Source: Bryopsis sp. KO-2023
Lineage: Eukaryota > Chlorophyta > Ulvophyceae > Bryopsidales > Bryopsidaceae
NCBI GenBank assembly: GCA_030272585.1
Contig: BSYQ01000009.1
Location: forward strand, 2,108,001 to 2,172,000
Direction of reading: 5' to 3'
Length of the DNA: 64,000 bases
Below are positions 1,677 to 63,107 of this stretch, piece by piece. The notes beneath the pieces were generated by a model, which was given only the letters and a program-made list of their open reading frames with translations, was not told where the DNA came from and did not search any database. A program made the translations under genes and the position numbers. Position 1 is the first letter of the stretch. Each line of letters starts with the position of its first letter.

Positions 1677-3149
1677 ATATCATATTCTTACAGTTCACAC
1701 GTGACTGTAGTGTAAACATACAATATCACATTATGCCAGGTTATGAAAAACTCATGCACCGCGACATTCTGCCGCCCAAGCACTTTCCACAGAGGGCCAT
1801 TCACACTTGCAATCCCTTCTCATCCTGCCTCACAATTTTCAAGCCTGTATGACAACCATTCACAACCCTGTCCAGTTTCTTCTTGCTGAACCAACTGATC
1901 CAATATTTTCATGTATGTTTCACTTTTTATGGTTTCGCTAGCTCCAATGATCACCAACCTTCTCTTGTTTCGATCAACAGCCTCCAAATAATCAAAAGTG
2001 CATTGGGAAGAGTAGCGTGTAATAACCCCCCCAAAAAAAAACAGAAATTATTAAAAATGAAACCAGAGGATAAACCAAGATTCTTGAGTCTCAAAACAAC
2101 CATATTTTTTGTGTCACCTGAACAAGAATAAACAAAGCAGATAGAAAAGATATTAAAAAACGAATTGAGACTAAGTAAATGAGTTGCTGATGAGTGTTGT
2201 TTTCTCGTACTACATGTGGCTCAGCTTATTCACTGGAAGAAAAAAATTTGGAAACATTGCACAAATAAGTGCACTTTGTCAATCACAGGCAGAGAAAGAA
2301 AAACAGTCAGAGAAGAGACTGGAGTGTCACAGAGAGGTGAATTTCATATTGAAAAGGTTCAATTGATTTTTGAACTGTTGAGGAAAATTTGAGGCTTGCA
2401 CACTGTTTCAGAACCGATATTCATGCTCAGAAGCAATTGCTTCTTGGCCCCAAAATTTGGGGGGTGAAGTGTATGAAATTTTTTTCAGAAAGTTACATCC
2501 CTTGTCACAGAAATATGTTGCTGCCTGGTACATGTTTGAATTTGGAACCGGTGAGAATTCAGTTTAATTGAGGTCACCATGGCAGTTTGGATGCTTAGGG
2601 GTGAAGAGGGAGAGATTTGTGTTGCAGTGCCCTGGAGTGTTTGGGTAGGCCAGTTAAGGCTATATGTGACTTTGGTTTGTGGAAAGACTATTTTGATCTT
2701 TGTGGCAGCTGTAGAAGGTGGCCACTTGGGCTGGGTGTTACACAAAAATTGCAACGATTTGAAAAAAAAAGAGCTGATCGATCGAAACGCTCACTGGTAA
2801 CCATCAGTGAAACGGTTCCAGAATTGGATCAATCTTACGGATGTGCTTCGAGTATAAAATCTGAAATCCATGTCCCTACAAAAACTGGAAAGAAGTAGAG
2901 TTAGTTGAGGAAGTTACAAAACTTGCACCGATCCGAGCCAGAGAAGCATTTGGAATTGTTGTGATCTACTGTGTTCACAATTCTTGCTCGCTCGATCACG
3001 GTATGGTGACTGTTTGTCAGACGAGCCGCCGAACGAGTGAGACCAACGAGAGGCCCGACAGTCATCAGCCACTTGGTCTTCAACAGTCATTTCGTGCAAG
3101 TGCCAAGTTTTCCGTGAGAGCGAGCGTTTCTTTGAGTTGACGGGACACC
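1677..3149. other. Intergenic, between cyclase and TMCC-A
   Basis: This is the shared upstream region of two divergent genes. Short open frames at 2389-2571 and 2617-2898 lie in the same frame but are separated by stops, and I recognise no family in them. A segment at about 2400-2535 resembles one at about 34888-35042 (listed separately). The rest is AT-rich with no structure I can name. Confidence 0.5.
2400..2535 (+). repeat. Dispersed repeat copy 1 (diverged)
   Basis: Blocks shared with about 34888-35042 in the same order: ATGCTCAGA, a G-rich block followed by AAGTGT and AAATTT, then a CACAGAAATATG block followed by CTGGTA. The last block reads PCHRNMLL in one frame in both copies. The second copy carries about 55 extra bases before that block. 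It may be a remnant of an old mobile element or of a duplicated gene; no terminal repeats or enzyme motifs are visible. Confidence 0.4.
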
Positions 3150-15902: not shown

Positions 15903-18045
15903 ATGAACGAAGCGACAGCTCTCGCCACGGTAACCGTCCAGGTGAGGCTTCGGCTGCCCCTCCCCGTTCGGGTGCTTATCGGCAAAGATAGGTTTTCTTG
16001 TTATATTTTGTCGAGTCTGTCGTCGCGCAGCGGGAAAGGCTCCGAGCGGCGGAACTCATCATCGTGCGACGCTGACTTTGAATGTCGACTTTCGTTTTTT
16101 CGCGATTTGGCACAATGCCCTTCGATTCGTTTTTAGTGTGCAGCAAATTCTAAGCAGACAATCTTCCGTTACTCATCCCATGAAAATTCTGCAAGGATTG
16201 CAGCATTATTGAGTTTGTGTTCCACCAAAATGAATTTTCCTTCTTGCCTTGGGTTTTGGGATCACTCAGTTGGGCAGAAAAAATAATACTGGAGAAAAAA
16301 AAATCATTGACATTAGTATGCAAAGAGAATGTCTTTTTAATTGTGCCGAGCACGTGCATTAGGATTGATGCTGCAGTTTAGTGTCAATATTTGCTTTCAT
16401 TGAGAGAACCAACAGGTCAATCAAGCGATCATGTGTTTGAATATCTTCGGAAGCTGATGCTCCGCTGAGGCCTTTGTTGCGTCTGACTCTGCACTGTTTA
16501 TGCATCTCACAGGATGATTGCAAACTTGGTGGAGGGTCGTGGTCAGCTCCTTACTCAGACATCATCCGTTTAATCATTGACCACCTCAAAATCGTGGATA
16601 GATGGAGGTGGGAGGGTCGGGCACTCAGACTGACCAATCGAACATGGTGCCGAACCATCAATCAATGCATCACCGAGGTCAAACCCCACGAGTCTCGAGC
16701 AACCACGATGTGCGACGTGGTGGAGGCATCCTCGAAATTCAAAGGGGTACATTCTGTGGATCTGTCAGGCTGCACGGGGCGATGCACGGAGGAGTCGTTT
16801 GGAGGGTTGCTTGGTCTGGCTCATTTAACCACAGTCAGACTGAGCGGGTTGTGCGTGACCGATTCGGGGATGCCCATGCTGGCGAAATCGCCGTCGATCA
16901 AACACTTGAGTTTGATCAAAGTGATGGTGACAGACATGGGGTTGGGGGCGGTGGGCAAGATGGAGCAATTGGAGTCTTTGGAACTGAAAGGGCTTGATTT
17001 TATAACCAGTGCTGCTTTGGGGAGCGTGTCGGGGGTGTCGACATTGAAGGTGGTATTGTGCACTCTGGTAACGGATGAAGGGATGACTAAACTTGGGTCT
17101 TACGAAAATCTGGTGGATTTGACGGTCATGTTGGTGGCAGTGGGCGATGCCGGAATATCGGTGGTGATGGACCTGACCAAATTGACCAGATTGACGCTGC
17201 TTTGTCATAATTCGACCGGGGCTGGTTTGTCCAAGATCTCGCAGCTGGCTTCCCTGAAGGAATTGTCGCTCAGGGAAATGGAGGATATAGATCTGCCGAT
17301 CGGGATTTGCAAGCTGACCTCGTTACGGCAACTCAGCATGTACAAGTCGAATAAGATTTGTGGGGAGGATTTGGAGTGCATAATGTCGATGAATTTGACG
17401 TCGCTGAGGCTGTATGGGATGGACAAGGTTCAACGCACGGATCTGACCAGGGTGGCGAAAATGGGAAGTTTGATGGAGCTTGGGATTGGGCAAATGAATA
17501 TCGTGAGAAGTGCGGACTTGGGGAGCTTGTGTGCGCTCACATGTCTGACTAAACTGAACTTGCAGCGGTGCCACAATATCGGGAACACAGGTGTGGCTTT
17601 GTTGACTCGACTGACCAATCTGAGGGAGCTCTTCCTGCACAACTGCGATCGAGTCGGGCGGAGAGGGGTCGAATACCTGGTGCCGCTCCAACATCTCGAG
17701 AAACTGACGGTCGGCCCGAACATGGATGATGCGTGCGTCTCGGTGATTTCCTTGATGCCGAATTTGAGGCAGCTGGGGTTCGTGCTGTGCAACGATTTGA
17801 CGGTGGGCGGGCTGCGACCTCTGCGAAGGATGGCTAGGTTGAGGGATTTGTGCTTGGACTGGTGCAATGTGTTCGCGACGAGCGGTTCGAGGGAATTCAA
17901 AGCATTGGCGAAGCTTTTTTTCATCGACTTGGACCATGTCGGGCTGCATCCGTTTCGCTTGACGGACGATATTATTAGGCAGATCCGACAGATTGCTCCG
18001 CCGCTGAAGGTGGATAGCAACGTCACTTGGGTGTGGGAGTGGTGA
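15903..18045 (+). CDS. F-box-like leucine-rich-repeat protein
   Basis: Probably a substrate-recognition or scaffold protein of the FBXL/AMN1 type. Exon 1 is 15903-15941 (MNEATALATVTVQ); exon 2 is 16513-18045 and is open throughout; 523 residues. An in-frame ATG at 15864 would add 13 residues. Residues about 25-70 (DIIRLIIDHLK, then LRLTNRTWCRTI) look like a weak F-box: two helices with Leu/Trp in the usual places but without the leading Leu-Pro. About 15 LRRs follow, many of the cysteine-containing kind (LTKLNLQRCHNIGNTGVALL, LRELFLHNCDRVGRRGVEYL). The C-terminal 40 residues leave the repeat. No signal or membrane segment is seen. SCF membership is inference. Confidence 0.8.
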
Positions 18046-20036: not shown

Positions 20037-23000
20037 CTAGTCTATCTTTTTTCTGACCACAAATGCATCCATTGGACCTTTCCTTTTCTGCTTCGCAATA
20101 TTTTGTGTTTTACCAAAGCTGGGCCTCCCTTTCGAGATCCCCTGACCCCCCCTCCAATTCCTGTTTTCTTCATCCTGCAATTTCCTAGCCAATTCTAGAT
20201 CGGAGGCTTCCGATAAATTGGATGATGGCAAAGCACCAGGGAAATCACCACCCGCCTTACTTCGATCCGAAACTTCTTCGGCTTCTTTCAACCCACTTCC
20301 ATTATTTGATACATCGCACCCACTTCCATTATTTGATACATCGCACGACACATTTCCAACCACAGCAACTTTCGAATGCTTCTTTTCCATAGGCAAATTG
20401 ATCTTTGGACTCTCCCCACTCCCCTTCTGCAAACTTCCCTGATCGCTACGATTTCCACCCACTGTTTGTGAATTCCAGTCTGACTTGTCCATACCCACAG
20501 AAGCTCTGGGTAAGCCCACTTGAGTTGTTTTTCCCCATGACTGCACATCAAGAGATCGGCGCTTCCTTGACGCCCACCCATCTATGTTAATTTTCATCGG
20601 CTCCACCCTCACCCCCGATGCTTGTTTCAGAATTCGAGCAGCCCAAGAGTCAGACGCCCCCGTCTCTCCACACTCATCGATGCTTTCCTCTTCCAAACCC
20701 CCCAACCCCAACCCTCCCATTGGCACCTCCTGCTTTCTTTTCTTTTCTGAGAAATCGTAGCCTTGCTCTCTCTCCCATTGTTCCCTTTCCTTGCGCTTGC
20801 TGAGAATCTTTTCTGGGATGCACTTGTAATACTTGCTGGAAACGCTGCAATCCAGAGAGGTCAACCCACCTTCGTTCGGCTTCCTATTCGACAGTCCCAC
20901 CTGCGTTTCGGAGCCACCCCCTTGTGAAGAGGTCACCCCGTTTTCTGGAGGCTTGAAGAATTGGCTGATGGGTGCGTGGGTGGATGTGGGTGGCTTTTCA
21001 TGGAAACTTGTCGCACCCAGATTGATGAGAGTCAAATTGAAAGGCGGCACAAGGTTTCTCGACAGAAGGGAGCCCGCTAATGACGCTACAGCCTTGACCT
21101 ACCAAAAAAGAAAGACAATATGCATTTCTCAAGAATCCCGAAATCACCGGTTGCTGCTTCTTTTAGGATTGAACAATGATTAGCCGAGGAAAAAATTCTG
21201 CCCTTGCGATTTACCACAATTGCACCTGGGTCTTTTTCCCCAACATCCAGTTTTTGTAATCTCATCAAATTTACCTGGGCCTTTTCATCAGCATTCGAAC
21301 TGAAGGTTGTGGGGAAGGCGGAGCTAGCTGACAAGCGATTGTTAACCCCGCTTGACCTCATCCTCCACTTCACGACTAATGTTTTGGGCCACCTGCCATT
21401 TTCATCGAATTCTTCCCTCAGTCGGGACACCAAGTCTGGTGCCAGCACCCCCACCACAATTTCGACAGCCTTCAAAGACTGGCACGTTTTGAAGGAATCT
21501 TCCACTGTGACTGACTTCGGAGGTCCCCTTTCCGTAACGGGAGTCGAATCTCGGCCATGGGCAATCTCAAGCAAGTAGCTGCCTTCAATTTCATTTGATC
21601 GAAAAACATAACACAACATATCAGCCACTCTGTTCTAGGTTTTCTCTCCCAGCTGTGGGTTGCTGGAATGCCACATTTCCGTCCTCTATATTGAACGAGG
21701 AAAGCAACAATGAAAAAAAATGAAAAAAACGCACCTGCCTTTTCCCCAAAGTTTTCCTTCAGTGTCTTCAGATCAACTTTTTGTTTGAGATCTGCCACTG
21801 TGTCGATTCCCAACTCCTTCAGCCCCCGTTCCATCTTGCTGCCCACCCCTGGTAAAGCCCGCACCCTGAGCGACGAAACAAATCCCTAGAAAAAAAAAAT
21901 CTGAACGTTGACCACAACGGTAATCGCAAGAAAGATTAACTGCAAGACAGAAACACATCTACAGCACAAAGGAAATTGCGTTTTGCTGTGGATTATTTTT
22001 TTTTATTGTTTTTTTATCTTTTTTCCTATTTTATATATAGAGAGAGATGGTCCATTTTTATATCCATGTGACGATGTGGCCCACACACAGGACACAGCAT
22101 GAAAAGCATTTGTTTGTTCAGTCTTACAGCTGCTTCAGGGGGAGGTAGAATCGTCTGATCATCCGGTTTGTGCAACCCACTGCAAAGCTTCGCCAGCAGC
22201 CTGTTGCATGCAATCCCTGCTGAACATCTCAACCCTGACTCCGCCTGGAAAAAACCCAACAAAGCCGGTCATCAGCAAAGCAACCAGAGATTTAAAAAAA
22301 AGCAGCGAAGTCTGCTTGAGAGTGTTTCCAAGCGAAAATGATCCATGTCAGTCATCCAAACAAAAGCACACGAAACAGACAACCAAAGCCCATGGGAGGA
22401 TATGACCGGCCCAGGAACTTCCTCAAAAAACAAAACTGAACTAAAGGCGACACCTTCAGCGACTGTCGAAGGTCAGCTGCAACATTACTTGCTGCCAAAA
22501 GCAATTTCCAGTACTGAGGGCTGTCTCGATCAAGCAGCATCTTATCAGAAGTGCCGTCCGGATGCGTTTTTTGACTGGAAATCGTGACTCTCAGATCCAT
22601 GGGCCGATGAGCGCTGTCTTGATGGATTTTGTCAGTCGACAAGTGAATGTGACCCCTCCACTCCAACCCCCTCGGATTCTCAGCCATTCTACGATGAGAC
22701 TCCTGTGTCGACACAAACATTAAAAAAATTTGGTCCGTCTCATGAAAACATACAGACATGACTAAAACCAGCTGTTTTTGTTTTTTTTAATCTGTTCGTG
22801 GCGGTACGAAACATTGCTGATCGAAGCATTGTTAAAGGAGTTTTTTCAAACGCATTTGCAACTCGCCTTGGTTACATCAACAATAACTTCGTCCATGCCC
22901 AGTTTCTCCACCACCCCAAATCGCTTGGCGATCTGCAGGATTTTCTTGCTAGCTTGCCGATATGGGGTCAAATCTTCCCCGCTGATCAACACCAGTTCTG

Positions 23001-38443: not shown

Positions 38444-41400
38444 CTAAAGTAAGTTGTCCCAACCTTCCACCTGCACTTCGCACAGGGTCAGGATCTGTGA
38501 CTTTCCAGGGATTCTGATGGTGACATATCTGCCCTGTGCAGAGCAGGCAAAGCCTTGTGTCTGACCACCAGGAACGCTCAGCCCACTGTTGCAAATACCA
38601 TTCTGACTGCCATCGCCCTGTGGCTTAGAATCCCCCACCCTGATCTCAAAATTTCTCAGCCTCTCCGAGCAGCAGTCTTTTCTGTTGGTCACCAAGACCT
38701 TTGTGATTTGCCTTTTGCCACCCAGATCAACCGTCCACCAGGGGTTGTCTGTACGCTCCTGCCGACGGTTACTACCCAATCCAGTGTGGGTGCAGCTCCC
38801 TCCTCCATAGTTTGTATCAAGGTTTCCATCCACTGCTCGGCTGCTTGGTCCCCCCCAGGCTGTGGTTGACTGAAAAGTGGGCCTTCCCTTGCTCAAAATA
38901 CTCTCTTGCTGGACTGGAGAGGACAAAAAAAGTGAGAAAAGGTGGCAAATAGGAATAGTATCTGTGCATTTTCCCCCAGATTTCACTGACGCTGGATCAG
39001 TCCAAATTTCAGAACCATCTTTTAACTTTTCATCTGACAGACAAACGTTCTATACATATATATATCCAATAAAGTGGGAATACCACACCTGGACCAATAG
39101 CCTCCACTTCGCACAGGGTGAGGATTTTTGAATTGCCTGGAATCCTGATCGTCAAGAACCTCCCCTTCCCCTTGCATTCAAAATCCAAGGTTTCCCCAGA
39201 AGGCACACTCAACCCACTGTTGCACACTGCATTCTGGTCCCCTGTTCCTGTCGGACTGGCATCCCCCAGCCGAATCTCAAAATTGGTCATCCTTTCAGAA
39301 CAGCAATCCTTCCGATTGCTCACCCGCACCCGGTTGATGAGTTTTGATGCACCCAGGTCCACCGTCCACCAAGGGTTGTTTGTAAGCGCCTGCCTATCGT
39401 TTCCAGTGTGGGTGCAGCTTCCTTGTCCATACAGGGAATTGGTGTTTCCATCGACAGCTCGCTCGCTGAACCCATCCCAGGCAGTAGAAGACTGAAACGT
39501 TCTTTTCCCTTGGCTCAGGACCATTTCTTGAGCAGCCAGCTCTCCAGATGCTGAAACACACACTTTTCATGAATGAATACCTTGGAATTCTCCCTGAAAG
39601 ATTTATTTGTGGGTTTTTTGTCAGCATAATTGGGGAGGTCCACTCAGGATTAGTCAGATTCCTCGTCATCGCACCTTTCGCATAGACTTGGACTTCACAC
39701 AGGGTCAAAATCTTAGCATTGCCAGGGATTCTAATCACCACAAATCGACCTCTCTTGGAGCAACCGAATTCCTTGGTCTCTCCCGCTTCAAAACTCAGTC
39801 CGCTTTTGCACAAGGGGTTATGGTCTCCTTGGCCCTGTGGCGGATTGTTCCCCACACGAATCTCAAAATTTGAGAGCCTTTCAGAACAGCAATCCTTTCG
39901 ATTTGTGACTACGACTTTTGTCAGCTGCACACTGGAGCCCAGGTCCACTCCCCACCATGGATTGACCGTGTGAGCATGACTGCCTCTATCCAGACCAGTG
40001 TGGGTGCAACTATTCCCGCCATAAGCAGAGTTCAAATTTCCATCCACTGCTCGGCTGCTGGATCCTCCCCATTCAGTTGTCGATTGAAAAGTCGGCTTTC
40101 CTTGGCTTACAAGCTTCTCTGGATCTGTGTGGCACCAAAAAAATAAGCTTGCTCAATTTTGAGAAATGCCTCATGAAACCACAGTTCATCTAAAATATTC
40201 CAGAGCATCGATGATTTTTAGTAGTTTGTGCCACCTGCAAATATATTTACCTTTGCAACCTGGAGGAATCCATTGCCCTGCTCTCCAGATGCATCCTGAC
40301 ACAACATGTCAAATGCATTCAAACACTCAAGTAAGTGAAAAACCCGCCAGCTTTGGAATTTTTTTAAATACACCAAACAATATCCCTTTGCGACTGGACT
40401 TGAATGCCCACCAAAGATATTGATCAATCATATTTCCGCATATTACACTTACTTGGACCCGGGGTGGGGACTGGCGTCGGGCTTGGGATTGGACCTGGAG
40501 ACGGGGGAGTTGGGGATGGAGGTACCTCCACGGGCGGCGGCTTCTCCTCACCCTGCAGGGCACTCAAATCTCAGATTCTTGTGGAGTTGGACTCGCACTG
40601 AAGCACAATGCCGTAGCAATCGCCGCAACAAACAGCCACAGCAGCCCCAGATCGTACCGCAATACTCAGCAGCTCTTGTTGAATCCAGCTATGCAAGGCT
40701 GGCACCGACGCGTAAATCCCAGGTTTCCCCAATTCACCACAGCCAGCGCCCCAAGACACGACCCCGACGATTTCTCCGTTGAAAAATAAGGGTCCTCCAG
40801 AATCGTTCTGGCATGCATCCTTGCCTTCCTCCCCGGCACAGATCATAGCATCAGTCACGCGCCCACCCATGGCCTCATTGCACAACGATCTACGCACGGT
40901 GGGGACCTCGACCTTCTGTATCACGTCGGCTTGCGATCGTCGATTATCCGCCACGGTTAGGCCCCAGCCGACAGTCACGACCCTCTTGCAAATCCCATCT
41001 TCGACGCAATTCCCTTTGTGTAGGACCGCGGGCGTAACAGACGCAAATCCATCCAGCACCAGCAACGCGACATCGTTGTTCTTCCAGCCCCCCTGTTCTT
41101 CATAGTCGGGATGGATGCGCGTCTCTTTCACTGCGAATTCCCTGAAACGCCCGAAATCGTCGCCTTCGCGATCTACGCGGCTCAAGTGCACGTCCGGGTT
41201 GATCAATTCGGCAGACTGTAAGCAATGGCCAGCCGTGAGGATAACGTTCGCAGCGATCAAGGTTCCGCCACAGAAATGCTGTCCTCCTCTGTGAGCGCTT
41301 GCTTCTTTTCGGATGCGCAGAGAGGCGACCTGAGGAAAGTCGCTGAGTTTGTTGATGTCCACACCAGGGACCCCTCCTATAATAGCCGCTACTTCTGGCT

Positions 41401-41512
41401 GGCGGCGACGTTGAGGTTGCTGCTCAACGGCTTCTAGTGGCTGGGCATGTGCAAAGGGCAAGAAGCAAACCAACCAAAGTAAGTATCTAATTGGGGTGGC
41501 GGGCAGCAACAT
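38444..41512 (-). CDS. Secreted trypsin-like serine protease fused to three fucolectin-type (F5/8C-like) domains
   Basis: Exons in coding order: 40658-41512, 40453-40552, 40251-40295, 39675-40124, 39089-39550, 38444-38913; about 793 residues. A signal peptide (LLWLVCFLPFAHAQ) is followed by a short propeptide with RRR, then IIGG at residue 44 as the activated N-terminus. The triad is TAGHC (His96), NNDVALL (Asp147) and DSGGP (Ser238). Asp232 sits at chymotrypsin position 189, so cleavage after Lys/Arg is expected. Position 193, normally Gly, is Asn (DACQNDSGGP). A Pro-rich linker (PPSPTPPSPGPIPSP) joins three domains of about 150 residues. Each domain has AVDGN, SCTHTG, NPWW-VDLG, NRKDCCSER, NFEIR-G and a closing ILTLCEV, the pattern of fucolectin-tachylectin-pentraxin domains that bind fucose. 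Each lectin domain is one exon with phase-1 borders. The first donor (GCG|GTACGA) is less certain. Confidence 0.88.
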
Positions 41513-42810: not shown

Positions 42811-44529
42811 TCATTCGTCTGAACGGAATTCTGGAAACCTGGCCTGCAAATCCCGTATATCTGCGATTAGCTCCTTGCACCCAGGTCGATTCTTGGGGTT
42901 CCCATCCCAGCATCGTTCGATCAACGCCTTAACATACGACATGGGATGGCCCTCCTCCTCAGGAAAGATTTCCGGAGGGAACTCCAACCTATTCCCTTCA
43001 TTCACCACCAGCAATATAGCTATTGGCACGTAATCCCTCCAAGGCCTCTTCCCCGTCAAGCACTCCCAAAGCGTCACTCCGACTGCGTAAATGTCCATCT
43101 TTTCCCCGATTCGCCCCGAAAGCACCTCCGGAGCTAAGTAACACGGCGTTCCAGCATGGGCATTGACCGTCTTCAAGTAGGATCCAGCTTTGGTTCTGGA
43201 CAAACCGAAGTCGGCCACGAGGGCTCGATGGTTTTTGTCCAGAAGGATGTTTTCGGGTTTCAAATCCCTGTGGACGATTTGCGGCTGCATGGAATGGAGG
43301 TGGTCGAGGCCTGCGAGAATGTCGAGCATGATATTGAGGGTCAAGGTGATGGGCAAGGCCCCCATGCCTTCCTCACCTTTCCCACCGTGAATCAAATCAC
43401 CCAAGGAGCGCTCCATCAGCTCCGACAGCATGAAAACATGCGGTCTGGATAAGGATCCCCCAAAGCACTTCACCACATTCTCATGCTGCCCTACTTCCTG
43501 CGTTCCAGCACGACAGCCCCATCTTCAGATTTCCAAAACTAAGAAAAACTTGCACACAGCAGAAATACAGCATGGGAATTGTTCAGGTGCCAAAAAAAAG
43601 TATGAATTTTTTTTTTGAAGTTCATCTTCCCCCTTACCCTCCTGGTGAAAACCCTTCAAATAGCTAAAACCTTCTGAAGATCACCTCATGACTAATCCAC
43701 TAAATCAGTTTCATCCGGTCCCTCTCACCTTCAAAACGCTGAGCTCCTTTCTCAAGCTGTCGATGAACTTTTCCCCTGACTCATACTCGTAATGATGCTC
43801 CGAAACCTCTTTCAACGCAACCAATCTTCCATCCCACATGGCCTCGAACACCATTCCGAACGCCCCGCTCCCGATCAGCCGCCGCCGCTTCAAATCATCA
43901 TACGAGATGCTCAAGGAGAATCCATCCACATGGACTTCATCCACCGCATTCGAGGTGATCAGCACGAAATCATCCTCGACATCATCTTGAATGGACATGC
44001 TGTTCGCCAAATCTTCACAGCCGCCGATTTTGACGCTCAGACCCCCGTCTTGCTCTTCTAGCAGCATGCACTCCGCGTTTCTCGAATTCCCACGCTTAAA
44101 TAACATGAACCTGAACTTGTCCGTGAGATCCTTGCCACTGCTGGACACCGTCGGGGTCGAGGTATCCGTCTCCTCGCTCCCTGACGATCGATTTCGACCA
44201 TGTCTGGTGGGTCGCCGGAATATGTTCTTGAAGTTGAAACGCTTCTTCGTCTGTATGCAATCTTGCGGCATTTGTATGGGAGGGAGGTCCTCCACGTCTG
44301 ATTCTGTGTCCCCCTTGTCATCCCCACCATCTGGATATATCACATGAGAAGCCGATGCCTCCCACTTGGCAGCAGATTCTGAGGTCTCCTGGATTTGCTT
44401 GGAGAGCCGGACTGCGCATGCACTCACTGTGGGGGTGGAGTCTTCCACATGCCCGTGATCTGAAACCAACCGCATCCAACTTAAGCCAGCCATCCACCAA
44501 TCGCTGGATTGACCCAGACATACATCCAT
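42811..44529 (-). CDS. TKL-type Ser/Thr protein kinase
   Basis: A cytosolic protein kinase of the tyrosine-kinase-like group. Exon 1 is 43729-44529 and exon 2 is 42811-43497 (phase 0, donor AAG|GTGAGA); 495 residues from ATG 44529. An in-frame extension upstream lacks an ATG. The first 235 residues are low-complexity with acidic and basic patches. The kinase domain shows IGSGAFGMVFEA (glycine loop), LVALKEV (Lys), VGQHENVVKCFGG, IVHRDLKPENILL (catalytic loop), VADFGLSR and PCYLAPEVL, then MDIYAVGVTLWECLTGKRPW. All catalytic residues are present. It is related to the tandem kinases at 59600-63107 (shared blocks NVVKC-GGS, EKMDIY-VGV-WECLT--RPW) but is older and split by an intron. There is no membrane segment, so it is not a receptor. 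Substrate unknown. Confidence 0.87.
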
Positions 44530-45731
44530 GGCGTGCAAAAATTCTGATCGATTCCACGATTCTGCCCAATGGTTACAACGTTTCGGGGAAAACGCTGGGG
44601 ATCCTTTTGAATTCCAGGCCTTCAGCGAGAGTATCACCAAACAGACGGAACCGAGGAGACGCCCAACGCCCTGTGATACTGCTAACCAATGAAGCAAGTC
44701 GCGCAATTGGAGCGAGCCTCACCTCGAGAACGCATCACGTCGTACTCTCGCAGAACCTGGACTTTCAAGTGTTGGGAGTCCTCAGCCATCAAGACCAGTC
44801 ACACTCGCACTTCACTCCCAGCACCAAACCTGAGCGATCTCCGTTGTGGGATAACTGCCCAACCCTGGAAAATTGGGTAAAGAAATGCGAAACAAAAACT
44901 GGGGCCTCTTGTGTCCAGTCAGAAAAAGGTGTCAAACGCCCAGCACAAGGCTTAGATAAGCAGCTGGCGCCCAGCGGTTTTGCGGTTTTGGCCAGCTTCG
45001 CGATTTGTGTTGTGAGACCTCAAAGAACTTCCGTCACAGTGACGATCTCGTCCGATGGCTGCACAGTGGCAAGTAGAACGTCAACTCCTGTGTTTGTGAC
45101 GCTAAATCACACCTGCATACATTGGGATTCCATGAAAAGTGTGATCGCAGTTCCGATAAAACGAAACGAAGGTTGCAGACAGGGTCCAGACAATTTCCAC
45201 AGTGGCAGGGATAAAGTCGATTAATTTCATCATCAAAAGGGCATGTTATGAGCCATCCCTGATTTCATTCGTAGACGCCTGTGTTACAAAAAAAAAAGCC
45301 AAAAATGTGTCATCGACACCAATAAATTTGATTCAATCCTCCTTCCCCATCTCGAATTCCCCAGCTACACCAAAACAAACCCCTCCAAAATCACACAAAC
45401 ATGATGATAAAATGCCCCGATATCCCTCTTGCAAATACAAAACCCTTTCATCATGATTAAGACCCCTCCACCCTTCAAATTCCTCCACCCATGCAAAAAA
45501 ATGCAAAAAGGTGCAGCAGCCACCAATAATACAATACACTGTTTCCCCCCACCCCCCCTTTTTTTCAAGAAACAAAACAAAAATATCCAATTGAGCATGG
45601 AATCTCCCCAGAAAACAGATAGGTCGAAGATCCTATCTTTTCCTCCCCCCCCCCTTGTTCCTCCCCTGATCGCTCAGTCCCCGACCCTCATTCCATCGAA
45701 TACAATTAAAAGAACCACCACGAAAAAAACA
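44530..45731. other. Intergenic
   Basis: 5' flank of the kinase and 3' flank of the CfaD-like protease. Open frames on + at 44355-45224 are antisense or shadow. The last 500 bp are A/C-rich on +. Confidence 0.6.
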
Positions 45732-55437: not shown

Positions 55438-56187
55438 TTAAACGGGCGTCGCTATTGTTGATACAAACCTAATTCCAGAATCCTTCAATCTGAAGTACAG
55501 TTTCCTGGATGGAACTATTTTCCCCTGATGCACCCCTGAAAACCCAGCTCTCTGTGTAACTATAACCTGCCCATCGACCTCTGCGATGGATATCAATTCC
55601 AGTGGCTGGGATGTGATGGTTACATCAGCAACATGCTCCACCCAATTCAACCATTGCCCATCATCCGAGACATCCACATGCACCAACGTAACGAATCTGA
55701 ATGCCACTGGGGTGTTGGCCATCATCGATCGACAATAACCCAGGAAAGACACCCACTCCGAAACGGGCGCCTCCACACACAAGGATCTCAGGGTCGTCAT
55801 GCAGTCGACGAACAGAGCAATCTTGCCCGACTGGGGCCCCGCCGCCAGTTCCGAAACGTTGCGTCGAATTTCATCGTGCATGGCTTTCAAGGAGGGCGGA
55901 TGTTCCGCCAAATTACCCAGGGGTCCACCAGCCAGCCAATCCAGCATCACTAGATTTCCACTTTCGATGGAGGGGGCGAGTGGCGCCATCAGCCTGCGCA
56001 TCACGCGCTCGTAGTGTTGGACGCTTTGATCCACCGCCACGAAAATCGCCTTATATCCCGACTCCAGGGTCTTCTTCAATAGATGAGGGAGTAGGAAGCT
56101 CGCCGGCGCATCCAGCGTATCTTTTACGCATATGAAACCCGGCGAGTGTGTGCAGGCGCCGAGAACCTCTTCTGAATTGGGATTCAT
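55438..56187 (-). CDS. ELP6: Elongator complex subunit 6 (ELP6)
   Basis: One of the three RecA-like subunits (Elp4-5-6) of Elongator, which modifies wobble uridines of tRNAs. Single exon, 249 residues from ATG 56187; the frame is open for another 50 codons upstream, but those look like 5' UTR. The pattern PASFLLPHLLKKTLESGYKA, then IFVAVDQSVQHYERVMRRL, SGNLVMLDWL, KIALFVDCMTTLRSL and a final sheet with FRFVTLVHVDVSDD, follows ELP6: a RecA fold with no Walker A P-loop. Length is usual for the family (about 250-270). The call rests on fold pattern and the ATP-site loss, so a distant ELP5 or another RecA-like protein is possible. Bud32, another tRNA-modification factor, is the next gene upstream on the same strand. 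Confidence 0.72.
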   Translation of the reverse strand: MNPNSEEVLGACTHSPGFICVKDTLDAPASFLLPHLLKKTLESGYKAIFVAVDQSVQHYERVMRRLMAPLAPSIESGNLVMLDWLAGGPLGNLAEHPPSLKAMHDEIRRNVSELAAGPQSGKIALFVDCMTTLRSLCVEAPVSEWVSFLGYCRSMMANTPVAFRFVTLVHVDVSDDGQWLNWVEHVADVTITSQPLELISIAEVDGQVIVTQRAGFSGVHQGKIVPSRKLYFRLKDSGIRFVSTIATPV

Positions 56188-57029
56188 CGAGCGATGTGTG
56201 CTTTTCGTGAACGGCGCGATTTTGAAAAAAGTTGGGGTAGGGGTGTTGATTTTGTCATGATTTTGATCTGCGAACATCTGTAGGATGATGTCAAATTTCA
56301 ACAAGCTAAAATTTCCCTTGGGGCAATATGAATCCATCGTTTCTAGAGAACCATCGACTATTGCTCAATATTCCTTCCCTTCTATCCTTTTCACAGGAAC
56401 CAGTGGATCACAAAAGGAATAAATTGTGAAAAAAAAGGTGATTGTTTTTTTTTAATGTATTGCATGGAGGATGAAAGCCAGTGAGTATATATTGAGTGAT
56501 ATGGGGCAGGGAGGGGATGGCTGCCAAGGAAGAGTTCCTGCAGTTCAGGCTCCCTCATTGAAATTAATGCAGAAGAGTCCATGGATCCAACTGATGGTTC
56601 GTTTCGACGAAAGTCAAAACAACTGACCACCAATCCTGTGTGGAAATGTATATTCCTTTTGCGATCATGCGGATAGATGTGAAACTCAACAGCACAGTTC
56701 CTTTTCAACTTCCTTCAAGCAAAATATTAACTTGAGGGAAAAAAACACACACACTCTTTCCTTGGGACTTCCAGATAACAGGATTTCCAGCGGTGATTTC
56801 AACGAAGGTTTTTCTTGAAGGTTTTTCGTTTCCTGTTAACAATTCTTCTAACACACCCTCGATCGATTGTCCCCCCCCAACACTCCAATTCTGTTACATA
56901 TTATCATCCTACCTATCGCCCCCTTATGTCTGATATCCCCAGGGGGGGGGGGAAACAAAAGAATATATATGTGTATAGATTTGTATAGCTGTTTTTGCTT
57001 AAGCAAATATAGATTAAAATTCATAATAT
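56188..57029. other. Intergenic
   Basis: Between the Bud32 3' end and the ELP6 start. A G run lies near 56940. No gene is seen. Confidence 0.6.
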
Positions 57030-57683
57030 TTAGCCTATCATAGGTCGTTTTCTTCCCCTCATCCGAACCTCCCTGTATTTGTTGTTCACCGAAGTCCACA
57101 TTCTGGTGGCTTTCTCATAATGCTCCAGTATTTGATTGAACCCCTCCTCCAGCCCTGGGTGGGCACTGGTAATAGCCCTTTCCAAAACGTACAGGTCAAC
57201 CCCTTTATCCTCCGCCAGTTTGGAATAGCTGCTCAGCCCGAAGTCGATGATCACCAGGGCACCGTCGCCATCCCTGACCATCATGTTCGACGTCGTGATA
57301 TCTCCGTGAATAATCGCGCCGTCGTGGAGCCGAGCCACACTCACCCCGATGTCTTTCCATAGCTTCTCCAGCTGCTCGTCGTTGAGCGTTTCCTCGCTCA
57401 AAATCTGTTTGACGCTTTTGCCCGAAATCTTTTCCATATACAGGCAGCCACCGTCGCAGTCCACCAGATACAGCACCGGCGTCAAAACACCCAGCTTTCG
57501 TGCCCGCAGCATGCATCGCGCCTCTTGTCTGAGGCGAGTGAGCGTGAGTTTCTTGTCCAGCTCCGGGATTCGATACTTCTTGCTGAACCTCTGCTTCACG
57601 ATGGTGGGGCGTTGCAAGAAGGCCACCTCGAAAACTTTCGCCTCCGCACCCTGGAAAATCTTCTTCTCTGGCGGCAGCTCCAT
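57030..57683 (-). CDS. BUD32: Bud32/PRPK atypical kinase of the KEOPS complex
   Basis: Small ATPase/kinase that supports Kae1 in making t6A at position 37 of tRNAs that read ANN codons. Single exon, 217 residues from ATG 57683, the usual size for Bud32. The N-terminus QGAEAKVFEV replaces a glycine loop. TIVKQRFSKKYRIPELDKKL carries the catalytic Lys and the characteristic K-YR-PELD motif. LYMEKISG, HDGAIIHGDITTSNMM (catalytic loop, HGDIT-SN) and IIDFGLSS follow. The C-terminus is basic (RMRGRKRP), as expected for tRNA contact. The micropeptide gene at 57922 starts 238 bp away in the opposite direction, so a shared promoter is likely. Confidence 0.93.
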   Translation of the reverse strand: MELPPEKKIFQGAEAKVFEVAFLQRPTIVKQRFSKKYRIPELDKKLTLTRLRQEARCMLRARKLGVLTPVLYLVDCDGGCLYMEKISGKSVKQILSEETLNDEQLEKLWKDIGVSVARLHDGAIIHGDITTSNMMVRDGDGALVIIDFGLSSYSKLAEDKGVDLYVLERAITSAHPGLEEGFNQILEHYEKATRMWTSVNNKYREVRMRGRKRPMIG

Positions 57684-57921
57684 CCCCTCGCACGAGTCAA
57701 TAAAACAAAAACACTCGACGCCAAAAAAAATAAAGCCGTCACCAGCTGCCACAAAGACTTCAAAACAAAAATGAGAACGATAATGAAAAAAAACCCAAAT
57801 CCTTGTGATCATTTTTAAGCTGCTGGATCAAACCTGGCGACGCTTAACATTTTTCTTGACGTCCCGGGCTGAACTGCTCTTTATCTTCCCCTCATCCCCT
57901 GCGTGGTTTGTTCGTTGGCTT

Positions 57922-58704: not shown

Positions 58705-59599
58705 TCGGCTTCTGTCCAGTGTCTTGGATTCAAATGGGAAAGGGTCTGCAAGGGTTGTAATCAAACCAAGAAATGAAGGATTTTCTTTTTGGATTGAGGT
58801 ATTGAGGTGGGGTCGCCAGTAGGAGACAGCTGGGAAACAGATTCGCATCAGGAGAAAGGCTTAGCTGTGGGTTTTGCAGGAGGGGATTTTGTTGTGGAAT
58901 GAGCAGAGTGTTGATAGATAGCCGGTGTGGACACGCACATCCACCCATGACAGTGCTTGTGACGGAGCCAGAATTCTGGAAGTCCCAGTTTCAACCTTGG
59001 TGTGCTGGTATCCCTTTGAAGCAAATGCAGCACTCCAAGGAAATCCAAGCTCAATGTTTTGATTGTGGGCAAGGATTGCCTGAGTGTTGGGTGGTGTTTT
59101 TCCTGCATCGTTCTATATATAACACCGCTTGCAACAGAGTCTGTTTTCAGCTCAAAAATAGAATGTCGACTGTCTCTTTTAACAGTAGAAGCGACCACCA
59201 CAAACTCTGTCCCTGGCGGCGACGAGCGTTATCACAACCGAAGTTCACCTTTTCGAAACCGTTGGGAAAGACAAAGCCTACTGGGAATAATGAGTGTGTT
59301 GTCCCTGCACACATACGCCATCATTTGAAAAAGAGAACACCAACGAGGCATCCCCCACCACCAAAACAGACACCGTGTGGAGACGAGGATTTTACGTGTC
59401 TGTTCCATTGGGGACGGTGTGTGTGACTGTGCGTCCTGGAACACTAGTTAAACTCGCGAACTTGTGCTGGTTGCACAAATTCATCTTCGAACGAGATCAC
59501 GACACTTGCGTCCTTCCAAGAGCCTTGCAAGTCGGATAGCAAATTCTGGAATGACCGCTGATTCTCGAACCTGTGATTCCTATCCTCGACGATCGCATC
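58705..59599. other. Upstream region of tandem kinase 1
   Basis: Contains the promoter side of the kinase. A 175-codon open frame at 58899-59426 lacks recognisable features, and its sequence has only patchy counterparts in the duplicated unit, so I do not call it a gene. Confidence 0.5.
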
Positions 59600-60817
59600 A
59601 TGGGGCTTTCAGGTATTAAGTCCCTCTTCCAGCCCATTTTCAACATTGGGAAGAAGGTAGTGGTGGGAGAGGAGAACAACGAGGGAACCGAGCTCATGTG
59701 GAGGTTGCCCATTGGAGCTGACGGACTATGCGAGCTAAGCAGGGAGCCCGTTCCCAACGCAGACACGCTACGATTGGTAGACGCAGGAGAGGATGGATTG
59801 GTGCTCGAATCTGGGGCGACCTCGATCGCCTGCCCTGTTTCGATCGGTAGGAATTCTTCGTCGATCTATAGGAGTTCTTTGTCGATCCATGACGATCGAG
59901 GATCAGGATCAGGATCACATGAACCTCTGGCGATCCTATTGGACATGAGCTATGATGCCATCCACAGAAAGGGGAGCCTGGGGGAAGGGGCTTTCGGCCA
60001 GGTGTCTGTTGCAGAGGTGGATGGGAAGGAAGTGGCTGTCAAGATGCTGCCCACATACTTTAGAAACGTGGATGAAGGGAAAGAGGGCCTGAGACGGGAA
60101 TTGGCATTGTTGGTCAGGGTGGGGCACCATCCAAACGTTGTCAAGTGTTTGGGTGGATCCGTAGTTGGACCTCATCTGTTTATTGTTTCAGAATTGAAGA
60201 AAGGTGGTACGTTGGGAGACTTGATCCATAAGGGAGGCCCAAACAGAAAGCCCCAGAGGCTGCCCGTTCGACGAGCTCTTCAAATAATTGAGGACATTTT
60301 GCGAGGGCTGGATCATTTGCACAGTCTGACACCAATCGTGGTGCACAGGGATATGAAGCCTGACAACGTGTTGCTAGACGAGGAGGGCACGGCATGCGTT
60401 GCTGATTTAGGGCTCTCCAGGTGCAAGCCCAACACATACGTCGACACTGATAATCATTGTGCAGGCACCGCTCCATACCTCGCCCCTGAGGTTTACAAAG
60501 GGGAACTGAACGAGAAAATGGACATTTACTCAGTGGGTGTGATTCTTTGGGAATGCTTGACTGCTCTCCGGCCTTGGAAAGGCTATGATTTGGTGGTAGT
60601 TTTGTGTCGGGTGCATCTAGGCCACAGGCTAGATTTTCCGCCTGATGTTTTTCCGATTGACGAGAAATCTGATGAGATCTCAGATTTGTTGATGGGGGAA
60701 ATCCGGGAGCTCATTGTCCGATGCTGGAAACAGGAACCAGAGGACCGGCCGAGTTGCAAAGAATTACTGCAAGACATTAAGGTTTTGAGGGAGTGCTTTT
60801 CCTCGCAGCTGGGTTGA
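59600..60817 (+). CDS. TKL-type protein kinase, tandem copy 1 (DLG variant)
   Basis: Intronless, 405 residues from ATG 59600; the frame upstream of it begins at GTG and lacks another ATG. The first 115 residues are a family-specific region (TELMWRLPI, DGLCEL-REPVPNADTLR) followed by a Ser-rich spacer. Kinase domain: LGEGAFGQVSVAEV, EVAVKMLP, HHPNVVKCLGGS, VVHRDMKPDNVLL, VADLGLSR, APYLAPEVY, KMDIYSVGVILWECL. The DFG motif is DLG, with the metal-binding Asp kept, and the catalytic loop has HRDMK rather than HRDLK. Activity is still possible. No membrane segment. Copy 2 is roughly 80 percent identical by eye. Both copies lack the intron of the related kinase at 42811-44529. Confidence 0.88.
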   Translation: MGLSGIKSLFQPIFNIGKKVVVGEENNEGTELMWRLPIGADGLCELSREPVPNADTLRLVDAGEDGLVLESGATSIACPVSIGRNSSSIYRSSLSIHDDRGSGSGSHEPLAILLDMSYDAIHRKGSLGEGAFGQVSVAEVDGKEVAVKMLPTYFRNVDEGKEGLRRELALLVRVGHHPNVVKCLGGSVVGPHLFIVSELKKGGTLGDLIHKGGPNRKPQRLPVRRALQIIEDILRGLDHLHSLTPIVVHRDMKPDNVLLDEEGTACVADLGLSRCKPNTYVDTDNHCAGTAPYLAPEVYKGELNEKMDIYSVGVILWECLTALRPWKGYDLVVVLCRVHLGHRLDFPPDVFPIDEKSDEISDLLMGEIRELIVRCWKQEPEDRPSCKELLQDIKVLRECFSSQLG

Positions 60818-61868
60818 GGCGCAGAAATATTTTGAAACCAGGATTTTGTGGCACCAGATCTCTTCTGAGATTGACAGCAGTATTTTTGTAGAAATGCTGC
60901 TGTGCCTTGTTTTTTTTTCCTAGGGGTGATTTTTGTGACGAACAATTTTCCAGGGCTAGGGGTGCCTTTTTTCATCATGATTTTTTTTTCTTGTGCAATG
61001 TAGAATATTATGTGTACAACTATGGAGTGGCCAGAATTGGTAACTATTTGTAAACACAGGTGTCCTGTGCTCATCACAGGAAGTGCAATTTGATGCAGTA
61101 AACTTTCAATTCTTGCGGTTTTGAGTTCAAACTTGAAAATTTCAAAATTTTCACTGGTTTATCACCATCGCTTGGCGAATGCCTTAATTGTTGGTATTCA
61201 ATAGGCGCGCGTTGACAAGCTGAAGTAAGAAAAGATTCACGTGAGAATGTCAATGTGAAGTTCGGAGATTTTTGTGGTGGCTGTGAGTTTGGGACTTGTG
61301 GCTGTAAGTTGCGCGACAGGTTTGGGAAGGGTCTTTCAACAAGGGATGAGGTTGTAAGGGATTCCTATTGTTTTGCCTGAGTTTGGGAGTACTTTATTGT
61401 CGAGAACAGTGTTTCCTCTTCACCGTTCAACAGTTGAGGGTTTTTGAGCGTTATCGAGCGTTATAACACACGACATCCAAATTTGAAAACCTGTAGGTAT
61501 GTTAAAACTTCCATGCCACGTTCCAAATGTCTGCAAGAGATGACCAGCAGGCAGATAAAAGTGCCCCCGTCGGGAATACACACTCTCACACACAAATCCC
61601 CATCATTTGAAAAAGAGCACAGCGAGGCGTTTCACCAAACGGGCTACCCCAGTAAAATGCATGTTCTGTGGCTGACAATATGTGTGACTGTGCGTGTTTT
61701 TGCCTTACTAGTTAACGCGAATTCGTGCGTCGTTGCAAACTCGTCACCGAACGACTTCACCTTCCGAGAGCCTTGTAAGTCGGATACCAAATCCTGGAAT
61801 GACCGTCGATATCGCTAGCGGTCGGTTTTCGTCGCGAACCTGTGATTCCAATCCTCGACGATCGCATC
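60818..61868. other. Spacer between tandem kinases, with an exon-2 relic of the micropeptide gene
   Basis: About 60818-61160 is the 3' flank of copy 1. From about 61161 the sequence follows the STMP1-like intron end and exon 2, then the kinase upstream region as in unit 1. Confidence 0.65.
61161..61340 (+). pseudogene. Relic of STMP1-like exon 2 and its flank
   Basis: ATTCAATAG followed by GCGCGCGTTGACAAGCTGAAGTAAG parallels ATTCAATAG followed by GTACATTGACAAGCTGAAGAATC at 58644-58680. The relic meets a stop right after the KLK codons and has no exon 1. It was carried along when the kinase duplicated. Confidence 0.7.
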
Positions 61869-63107
61869 ATGGAGCGTTCAGGTATCAAGTCCCGCTTGCA
61901 GCCCTTTCTCAAGTTTGCGAAGAAGTTGGTGCTGGGCAAGGAGGCCAACGAGGGAACCGAGCTCATGTGGAGGTTGCCCATTCGAGCTGATGGACTATGC
62001 GAGCTAACCAGGGAGCCCGTTCCCAACGCAGACACGCTACGATCGGTGGATGCAGGAGAGGATGGATTCGTGGTGATCGAATCTGGGGCGACCTCGATCG
62101 CCTGCCCTGTTTCGAGCGGTGGGAATTCTTTGTCGATCGATACGAATTCTTCGTCGACCAATGGCGTTGGATCCTCCATGACTGACGGCGATCGAGGCTC
62201 AGGATCACATGAAGCTCTAGCGATCCAATTGGATATGAGCTATGATGCCATCGACAGAAAGGAGATCCTGGGGTTTGGGGCTTTTGGCCAGGTGTTTTCT
62301 GCAGACATGGATGGGAAAGAAGTGGCTGTCAAGATGCTACCTCCACACTTGGATGGGCTGGATGAAGTGAAAGAGGGCCTCAGACGGGAATTGACGTTGT
62401 TAGTCAGGGTGGGGCAGCATCCTAATGTCGTCAAGTGTTTGGGTGGATCCGTACTTGGGCCTCACCTGTTTATCGTTTCAGAATTGAAGAAAGGTGGGAC
62501 GTTGGGGGACTTGATCCATAGGGGAGGCCCAAACAGAAAGCCGCAGAAGCTGCCTGTTCGACGAGCTCTTCAAATAATTGAGGACATTTTGCGAGGGCTG
62601 GATCATTTGCACAGTCTGACACCGATGGTGGTGCACAGGGATCTGAAGCCTGACAACGTGTTGTTAGACGAGGAGGACAGGGCATGCGTTGCTGATTTTG
62701 GGCTCTCGAGGTGCAAGCCCAAGACGTATGTGCAACCTACAGATCCTGGTGCAGGAACCACTCCATACCTCGGCCCCGAGGCTATGGGGGGGAAACTGAA
62801 CGAGAAAATGGACATTTACTCAGTGGGTGTGATTTTTTGGGAATGCTTGACTGCTCTACGGCCTTGGAGAGACTTTGATTTGAGGGCAGTTCCGTATTGG
62901 GTGCATCGTGGCCACCGGCTAGATTTTCCGTCTGACGTTTTCCCGGTGGACAAGAAATCTGATGAGATCTCAGATTTGTTGATGGGGGAGGTCCGGGAGA
63001 TGATCGAGCGATGTTGGGAACAGAAACCAGAGGACCGGCCGAGTTGCAAAGACCTCCTGCAAGACATTGAGGGTTTAAGGAAGCGCTTTGCCTCGCTCCT
63101 GGGTTGA
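61869..63107 (+). CDS. TKL-type protein kinase, tandem copy 2
   Basis: Intronless, 412 residues from ATG 61869. Same layout as copy 1. Motifs: LGFGAFGQVFSADM, EVAVKMLP, QHPNVVKCLGGS, VVHRDLKPDNVLL, VADFGLSR, KMDIYSVGVIFWECL. The DFG and HRDLK motifs are canonical here, but the APE motif at the end of the activation segment is GPE (TPYLGPEAM), with the Glu kept. The Ser/Asn-rich spacer is a few residues longer than in copy 1 (NSLSIDTNSSSTNGVGSS). An active kinase is expected; substrate unknown. Its presence as an intact frame in both copies implies that each has been under selection. Confidence 0.9.
   Translation: MERSGIKSRLQPFLKFAKKLVLGKEANEGTELMWRLPIRADGLCELTREPVPNADTLRSVDAGEDGFVVIESGATSIACPVSSGGNSLSIDTNSSSTNGVGSSMTDGDRGSGSHEALAIQLDMSYDAIDRKEILGFGAFGQVFSADMDGKEVAVKMLPPHLDGLDEVKEGLRRELTLLVRVGQHPNVVKCLGGSVLGPHLFIVSELKKGGTLGDLIHRGGPNRKPQKLPVRRALQIIEDILRGLDHLHSLTPMVVHRDLKPDNVLLDEEDRACVADFGLSRCKPKTYVQPTDPGAGTTPYLGPEAMGGKLNEKMDIYSVGVIFWECLTALRPWRDFDLRAVPYWVHRGHRLDFPSDVFPVDKKSDEISDLLMGEVREMIERCWEQKPEDRPSCKDLLQDIEGLRKRFASLLG

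What the first reader, a model, noticed from the sequence alone, without database searches (positions are those of the whole stretch)
38444..41512. Secreted trypsin-like protease carrying three fucose-lectin-type domains
The sequence shows a signal peptide, a trypsin domain with full triad, a Pro-rich linker and three FTP-like domains with NRKDCCSER and SCTHTG signatures. FTP lectins bind fucose and are known mostly as separate proteins or with other partners. A glycan-targeted protease would cut proteins on fucosylated surfaces, such as prey, algal mucilage or mating partners. The target is inference.
Basis: partly seen in the sequence, partly recalled or inferred. Interest (0 to 1): 0.75.

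Follow-up and report, generated by a model that had tools for sequence, protein, structure and literature searches.

The report
Trypsin tethered to three fucose lectins
A gene in an unidentified eukaryote appears to encode a secreted trypsin-like enzyme joined by a proline-rich stalk to three fucose-binding lectin modules, so it probably cuts proteins on fucose-coated surfaces; the parts are well known, but the combination is unusual.

Summary
On the minus strand, 38444-41512 reads as one five-exon gene (778 aa): signal-like N-terminus and trypsin (exon 1), Pro-rich linker (exon 2), and three F-type lectin (FTP) domains, one per exon, with phase-1 introns. Pfam gives Trypsin E 7e-44 and F5_F8_type_C_2 E 1e-59 in three stretches. 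The catalytic triad and the Asp189 equivalent are present. All three lectin domains keep His52, Arg79, Arg86 and Cys82-Cys83 of eel agglutinin and its calcium-site side chains. They group together in a tree, as a local tandem duplication would. Of 15 bacterial lectin-bearing frames scanned, none has a trypsin domain, but three are metalloproteases (one M10, two M12B) with the same plan: protease, Thr/Pro-rich linker, 3-4 tandem F-type domains. Protease-CBM32 fusions are already known, including four eukaryotic S01A entries (PMC3267712). Best reading: a glycan-tethered extracellular trypsin. Weak point: intron 1 (105 nt) must be spliced for trypsin and lectins to share one chain; no RNA evidence was available. 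Target, organism and activity are untested. New variant of a known kind; moderate interest.

The parts
41444..41512 (-). signal peptide, aa 1-23 (MLLPATPIRYLLWLVCFLPFAHA), likely cleaved after AHA
   Evidence: read by eye from the translation; no signal-peptide predictor was available; the low-confidence AF2 model puts a helix at 7-16
41384..41443 (-). pro-segment, aa 24-43, ending EVAA before IIGG; no Arg/Lys at P1
   Evidence: sequence; the zymogen reading is inference
40664..41383 (-). trypsin domain (S1A), about aa 44-283; His96, Asp147, Ser238, Asp232 (189 equivalent); Asn236 in place of Gly193
   Evidence: Pfam PF00089 E 7.1e-44 over aa 59-277; PDB trypsins E about 4e-35 with alignment
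40658..41512 (-). exon 1
40553..40657 (-). intron 1, 105 nt, phase 0, multiple of three, holds an in-frame TGA; donor GTACGA, acceptor CTGCAG; least certain splice
   Evidence: 20 of 48 GT-AG pairs tried keep the frame; all give the same domains
40453..40552 (-). exon 2: Pro-rich linker GEEKPPPVEVPPSPTPPSPGPIPSPTPVPTPGP
   Evidence: donor GTAAGT, phase 1
40125..40452 (-). intron 2, 328 nt, phase 1
39675..40124 (-). exon 3: F-type lectin domain 1
   Evidence: Pfam PF22633; residue check
39551..39674 (-). intron 3, 124 nt, phase 1
39089..39550 (-). exon 4: F-type lectin domain 2
38914..39088 (-). intron 4, 175 nt, phase 1
38444..38913 (-). exon 5: F-type lectin domain 3 and stop codon
   Evidence: AF2 model pTM 0.73 with FBP32 and AAA as best Foldseek matches

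Best explanation
A secreted, lectin-tethered trypsin. Shown from sequence: a trypsin domain with complete triad and trypsin-type S1 Asp, a Pro-rich linker, and three F-type lectin domains with intact fucose and calcium motifs, in consecutive phase-compatible exons. Inferred: the protein is exported as a zymogen and activated by cleavage before Ile44 by another protease, because P1 is Ala. The three lectin domains bind terminal alpha-L-fucose (or a sugar with the same axial 4-OH) together, which raises avidity. The stiff linker then holds the catalytic domain over a fucosylated matrix or cell surface, where it cuts after Arg/Lys in nearby glycoproteins. This would work like CBM-dependent mucinases, whose CBM32 modules are needed for long glycosylated substrates but not for short glycopeptides.
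For: Domains and E-values. Fucose triad, Cys-Cys pair and calcium-site side chains kept in 3 of 3 domains (ligands from PMC5712786). AF2 model of domain 3 best matches FBP32 and AAA. Gene model: the FTP1 exon has no in-frame ATG between the upstream stop and the domain and the linker exon has none after the upstream TGA, so both need an upstream exon; the lectin introns are phase 1. Same layout in three bacterial metalloproteases. Mechanistic precedent: PMC13003899 abstract.
Against: No transcript or protein evidence. Intron 1 has a weak-looking donor (GTACGA) and no pyrimidine tract. A short first exon for a separate lectin gene inside the 328-nt intron 2, which holds ATG codons, is not excluded. 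Asn replaces Gly193 in the oxyanion loop. P1 of the presumed activation site is Ala. AAA's Tyr46 is Gly and Phe45 is Tyr here, and the loop after SCTHT is 5-8 residues longer than in AAA, so sugar preference may differ. In L046, one of the three bacterial parallels, the fucose triad is incomplete. The trypsin model was too poor to use (pLDDT 33).
Confidence: 0.62

Rival explanations
1. A recognition protease of a cascade: the lectins sense foreign or damaged fucosylated surfaces and the trypsin then cuts one specific partner zymogen, as MASPs and horseshoe-crab factor C do (recalled), rather than digesting the surface.
For: Single trypsin domain plus multivalent lectin, presumed zymogen with a P1 residue that trypsin itself would not cut. 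Some F-type lectins mediate immune recognition (PMC5712786 passages).
Against: No partner protease or inhibitor among the 17 other window reading frames scanned with Pfam (8, 9), which is weak evidence because partners need not be linked and the window was not scanned whole. Cascade proteases of this kind are known mainly from animals (recalled).
Confidence: 0.15
2. Two genes or two transcripts: a secreted trypsin ending in exon 1 (313 aa, if intron 1 is kept) and a separate triple F-type lectin with its own short first exon.
For: Exon 1 is open to its own stop ending at 40571. Intron 1 has weak splice signals. Intron 2 holds ATG codons that could start a short exon.
Against: The lectin and linker exons have no in-frame ATG of their own (FTP1; linker). 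The linker exon starts right after an AG and ends in a strong phase-1 donor matching exon 3. The 28 residues between the trypsin end and that stop do not look like linker (by eye).
Confidence: 0.15
3. A lectin with an impaired or regulatory protease domain, in which Asn193 lowers activity or inhibitor binding, so that binding rather than cutting is the main function.
For: Gly193 is replaced by Asn in an otherwise conserved DACQxDSGGP. Position 193 changes alter inhibitor binding in mesotrypsin (recalled).
Against: Triad, Asp189, Gly216 and Gly226 equivalents and the usual disulfide cysteines are kept.
Confidence: 0.08

Closest known systems
FBP32 (3cqo) and eel agglutinin AAA (1k12), F-type lectins
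   Same: same domain family; window domains 40-45% identical to the AAA fragment compared, with fucose and calcium-site side chains kept
   Different: lectins without a protease; Tyr46, Phe45 and the loop after SCTHT differ
M60-like/CBM32 mucinases (BT4244, HC11)
   Same: secreted protease whose CBM32 modules are needed for long glycosylated substrates (PMC13003899 abstract)
   Different: zinc peptidases, with CBM32 modules for Tn/T O-glycans rather than F-type lectins for fucose
S01A peptidases with a CBM32-profile domain (MEROPS, PMC3267712 Table 5)
   Same: four eukaryotic trypsin-family entries counted with CBM32/PF00754; the window protein also hits PF00754
   Different: those four sequences were not seen here; whether any is an F-type lectin or has three is unknown to me
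Bacterial M10 and M12B metalloproteases with tandem F-type domains (L017, L045, L046)
   Same: protease, Thr/Pro-rich linker, then 3-4 tandem PF22633 domains; signal-like N-termini by eye
   Different: different catalytic fold; lectins lack the Cys50-Cys146 pair; separate group in the tree; in L046 the Arg86 position is Ala in 4 of 4 domains
M11 (gametolysin-type) peptidase with GNA lectin
   Same: protease-lectin pairing outside animals (PMC6362431 passages)
   Different: other protease and other lectin family

Membership tests
F-type (FTP) lectin domain | His52, Arg79, Arg86 fucose triad and RxDx4R motif | tested here: met
   3 of 3 domains; RKDCCSER in each
F-type (FTP) lectin domain | Cys82-Cys83 pair, Cys50-Cys146 and Cys108-Cys124 | tested here: met
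   six Cys per domain at these positions, 3 of 3
F-type (FTP) lectin domain | calcium-site side chains Asp38, Ser49, Glu147 | tested here: met
   3 of 3; Asn40 and Cys146 also kept; Asn35 is Arg but contributes only its backbone O
F-type (FTP) lectin domain | F-type jellyroll fold | tested here: met
   domain 3 only: model pTM 0.73, pLDDT 68.7, residues 8-49 low confidence; best PDB matches 3cqo and 1k12, TM about 0.6, rmsd 5.6 A
F-type (FTP) lectin domain | binds L-fucose | not testable with these tools
   needs a glycan array or calorimetry
S1A trypsin-like protease | His-Asp-Ser triad and trypsin-type Asp189 | tested here: met
   His96, Asp147, Ser238, Asp232
S1A trypsin-like protease | Gly193 of the oxyanion loop | tested here: not met
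   Asn236; Gly193 is usual, not obligatory (recalled)
S1A trypsin-like protease | activation site with Arg/Lys at P1 before I-V-G-G | tested here: not met
   EVAA|IIGG; not defining for the whole family (recalled)
S1A trypsin-like protease | proteolytic activity after Arg/Lys | not testable with these tools
   needs expression
Protease with glycan-binding modules (CBM-targeted protease) | both parts on one polypeptide | tested here: inconclusive
   gene model only; intron 1 splice not confirmed by RNA
Protease with glycan-binding modules (CBM-targeted protease) | lectin part needed for cleavage of large glycosylated substrates | not testable with these tools
   bench test proposed

The most novel reading that the evidence does not exclude
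Protease, stiff Pro-rich stalk and tandem F-type lectins is a convergent design that has been built at least twice on different catalytic folds (serine protease in a eukaryote, metzincins in bacteria), giving fucose-addressed proteases. In this gene, keeping the 105-nt stop-containing intron 1 would release a free trypsin without lectins, so one gene could make both a tethered and a diffusible enzyme.
Probability: 0.15. Interest if true: 0.6.

Novelty: new variant of a known kind. Interest (0 to 1): 0.42.

Why it matters
If true, it adds fucose to the addresses used by glycan-targeted proteases and puts the design on a trypsin scaffold, which is easy to express and assay. Fucose-rich matrices are common in algae and on animal mucus (recalled), so such an enzyme could act in matrix remodelling, mating, symbiosis or feeding. 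FTP-domain or fucolectin genes are reported from a green-algal male-specific region (PMC10256686, passage) and a lichen-photobiont secretome (PMC12712428, passages).

Tried and rejected
Own genome search: none held for this window, so copy number and organism could not be checked. Rfam (gathering threshold) and tRNA scans of the window were empty. Close relatives of the lectin: the genome-contig scan gave 1 weak locus out of 23 pattern matches, a long frame with a discoidin-like end (by eye), and searching that locus's whole genome G001 with alignment A2 found nothing. Two viral-contig scans confirmed none of 71 and 33 pattern matches. FTP1 against phage records: none at E 1e-5. FTP3 against plasmids: 2 weak bacterial hits, with no protease among the features annotated around them. 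NCBIfam gave nothing for the trypsin exon and only a below-cut-off metalloprotease match for L017. The trypsin structure job was useless (pLDDT 33). Literature: all 10 searches used. No title or abstract start in the listings is about a trypsin-F-type-lectin protein, but one search listed 20 of 336 papers and 20 of 55. The main survey (Bishnoi et al. 2015) is not held and its domain tables were not seen, so I do not claim that the architecture is unpublished. Weakened: that L046's domains bind fucose (Arg86 is Ala in 4 of 4, Asp81 is Gly in 3 of 4). Rejected: that the bacterial fusions found here are the source of this gene (lectins form separate groups, with the tool's long-branch warning; and the protease domains are of other families).

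Full report
What is there. The window looks eukaryotic: genes interrupted by GT-AG introns and ELP6 and Bud32-type genes. No whole genome is held for it, which by itself does not tell the organism. On the minus strand an ATG at 41512 opens a 313-codon frame holding a signal-like N-terminus and a trypsin domain. Further down lie a Pro-rich frame and three lectin frames. A GT-AG model with exons 41512-40658, 40552-40453, 40124-39675, 39550-39089 and 38913-38444 gives 778 residues with no internal stop. Introns 2, 3 and 4 are all phase 1, with acceptors CACACAG, TTTCAG and CTCCAG. Each lectin domain is one exon; those of domains 1 and 2 are flanked on both sides by phase-1 introns. A GT in the same phase lies just before the stop of exon 5 (38463), so a further exon is not excluded.

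The weak joint. Intron 1 (40657-40553, 105 nt) is a multiple of three, carries an in-frame TGA, and has donor GTACGA and acceptor CTGCAG with no pyrimidine tract. I tried 8 donors and 6 acceptors around it: 20 of 48 pairs leave the frame open to the end, and they differ only in the junction residues (up to about 25). The case for one gene is that the FTP1 exon has no ATG between its upstream in-frame stop and the domain, and neither has the linker exon after its upstream TGA. Both therefore need an upstream exon. The trypsin exon is the natural candidate, but a short start exon inside intron 2, which holds ATG codons, is not excluded for the lectins. If intron 1 were kept, a 313-aa free trypsin would result.

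The trypsin. Pfam PF00089 matches aa 59-277, E 7.1e-44. In the PDB the best matches are trypsins at E about 4e-35; 524 distinct sequences matched and the best 60 were shown. The triad is His96-Asp147-Ser238, with Asp232 at position 189, and eight cysteines after the signal peptide fit, by position, the pairs 42-58, 168-182, 191-220 plus a local CVEDGIC pair (positions; pairing is inference). Two oddities: Asn at position 193, and EVAA rather than Arg before IIGG. The first may change inhibitor sensitivity and the second implies activation by another protease; both are inference. The only N-glycosylation sequon is NDS at the active-site serine.

The lectins. PF22633 E 1.2e-59 with three stretches and PF00754 E 2.6e-34. 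PDB matches, 6 distinct sequences: FBP32 3cqo E 1.4e-52, AAA 1k12 E 4.2e-22, two platelet-aggregation-factor (lectinolysin) sequences and two fucolectin-related proteins. The domains are 60-64% identical to each other and 40-45% to the AAA fragment compared. Against the AAA ligands listed in PMC5712786 (passages), all three domains keep His52, Arg79, Arg86, Cys82, Cys83, Asp38, Asn40, Ser49, Cys50, Cys146, Glu147, Cys108 and Cys124. Changes: Asn35 to Arg (a backbone ligand), Phe45 to Tyr, Tyr46 to Gly, and a loop after SCTHT that is 5-8 residues longer. AAA's Arg41-Glu149 salt bridge is not kept (Leu/Thr at 41). An AF2 model of domain 3 from a three-row alignment (pLDDT 68.7, pTM 0.73, residues 8-49 poor) finds 3cqo and 1k12 first in Foldseek. 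tblastn of the model against the window finds no further copy (remaining hits E 1 or worse).

Relatives with proteases. I searched prokaryote genomes with an alignment of the three domains plus fish lectin fragments (A2): 6 of 395 genomes of one phylum draw and 7 of 148 of one class matched, 10 different genomes in all. The genome G001 itself, reached through a weak locus, did not match. I scanned 15 lectin-bearing reading frames from 9 of the 10 genomes with Pfam (7, 8). A 5862-aa frame in G133 (over the size limit) and a 203-aa frame in L017 were not scanned. None of the 15 has a trypsin domain at E 0.001. Three have a peptidase: L017 1212-5447 (Matrixin PF00413, E 2e-6, HELGHAIGFGH) with three lectin domains, and L045 1644-5048 and L046 1618-4758 (Reprolysin_5, E 2.6e-18 and 5.9e-22) with four each. 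In all three a TP-rich linker separates protease and lectins. Across L017 and L045 1644-5048, His52 and Arg79 are kept in 7 of 7 domains and Arg86 in 6 of 7; L046 1618-4758 has Ala at Arg86 in 4 of 4. The other twelve carry other partners (for example NHL or LVIVD propellers, sugar dehydrogenase with laminin-G, planctomycete-type domains) or none recognised, so a protease is a minority partner: 3 of 15 frames, in 3 genomes. In G455 the four-domain array of the M12B protease pairs domain by domain with that of a neighbouring gene, so the array seems to move as a cassette.

Tree. In a 37-row tree the window's three domains form one group (97/89), the fish fragments another (99/96) and the bacterial ones a third (100/99). 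The tool warns that long branches meet between groups, and the root is only a midpoint. The window array thus looks like a local tandem duplication, and the bacterial fusions, with other protease families, like independent ones.

Mechanism. The layout, the intact ligand sites in all three domains, and the repeated pairing with unrelated proteases point to targeting: the lectins hold the enzyme on fucosylated material. [quoted passage not shown] This is likeness of working, not membership.

What is known. PMC3267712 (abstract and passages) counted 110 MEROPS peptidases with CBM32, among them 4 eukaryotic S01A and 6 eukaryotic M12B. The window's F-type domains also hit PF00754, so trypsin-F-type proteins may be among those four; I did not see them. 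PMC5712786 (section 16 part 1 and passages) says that diatoms, cryptomonads, brown and green algae carry F-type domains, mostly with other domains, and that protozoa appear to lack them; the words 'protease' and 'trypsin' do not occur in its main text. PMC6362431 (passages) reports peptidase M11 with GNA lectin, and LysM with FTP in Chlamydomonas. PMC10256686 and PMC12712428 (passages) report an FTP-domain gene in a male-specific region and a fucolectin-like protein in a Trebouxia secretome. PMC4362344 (passage) lists two fucolectin hits in one rhizarian holobiont. PMC8643629, a review of Chlamydomonas proteases, has no occurrence of 'lectin' in its main text. The survey by Bishnoi et al. 2015 could not be read.

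Organism. Unknown. The Bud32 homologue at 57033-57827 matches chain 8k20_B (E 4e-65) better than human TP53RK (1e-50); I recall 8k20 as a plant KEOPS structure, and the SP/TP-rich linker resembles algal hydroxyproline-rich proteins (recalled). A green alga is therefore a guess with some support.

Verdict. Novelty is moderate because the kind (protease with glycan-binding modules) is established.

Noticed in passing
L045:1644-5048 and L045:7095-9686: Two neighbouring genes of a bacterium carry four-domain F-type arrays that pair domain by domain in the tree, behind different N-termini (one a reprolysin-type protease): apparently a lectin cassette copied between genes.
   Followed up: partly
L017:1212-5447 (minus): Bacterial matrixin-like protease with near-identical tandem F-type repeats; a further repeat lies in another frame.
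   Followed up: partly
L043:1513-6369 (Persicobacter plasmid pPP5): An F-type-like carbohydrate-binding protein is annotated close to a glycoside hydrolase family 95 gene, a family I recall as fucosidases.
   Followed up: no
window 42811-44718 (minus), 59555-60814 (plus), 61806-63104 (plus): Three protein kinase genes that look related; the last two are neighbours and very similar by eye.
   Followed up: no
window 57033-57827 (minus) and 55441-56364 (minus): Bud32/TP53RK homologue and ELP6 homologue close together; both are recalled as tRNA-modification factors.
   Followed up: partly
window 327-1679 (minus): Fragment that reads like a class III nucleotide cyclase (ADITGFT, by eye); no Pfam match at the cut-off.
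   Followed up: no
window 21089-21634 (minus): Weak match to the Y-family DNA polymerase C-terminal domain (PF11799, E 1e-4).
   Followed up: no
window 16441-18042 (plus): Leucine-rich-repeat protein in an open frame of 534 residues.
   Followed up: no
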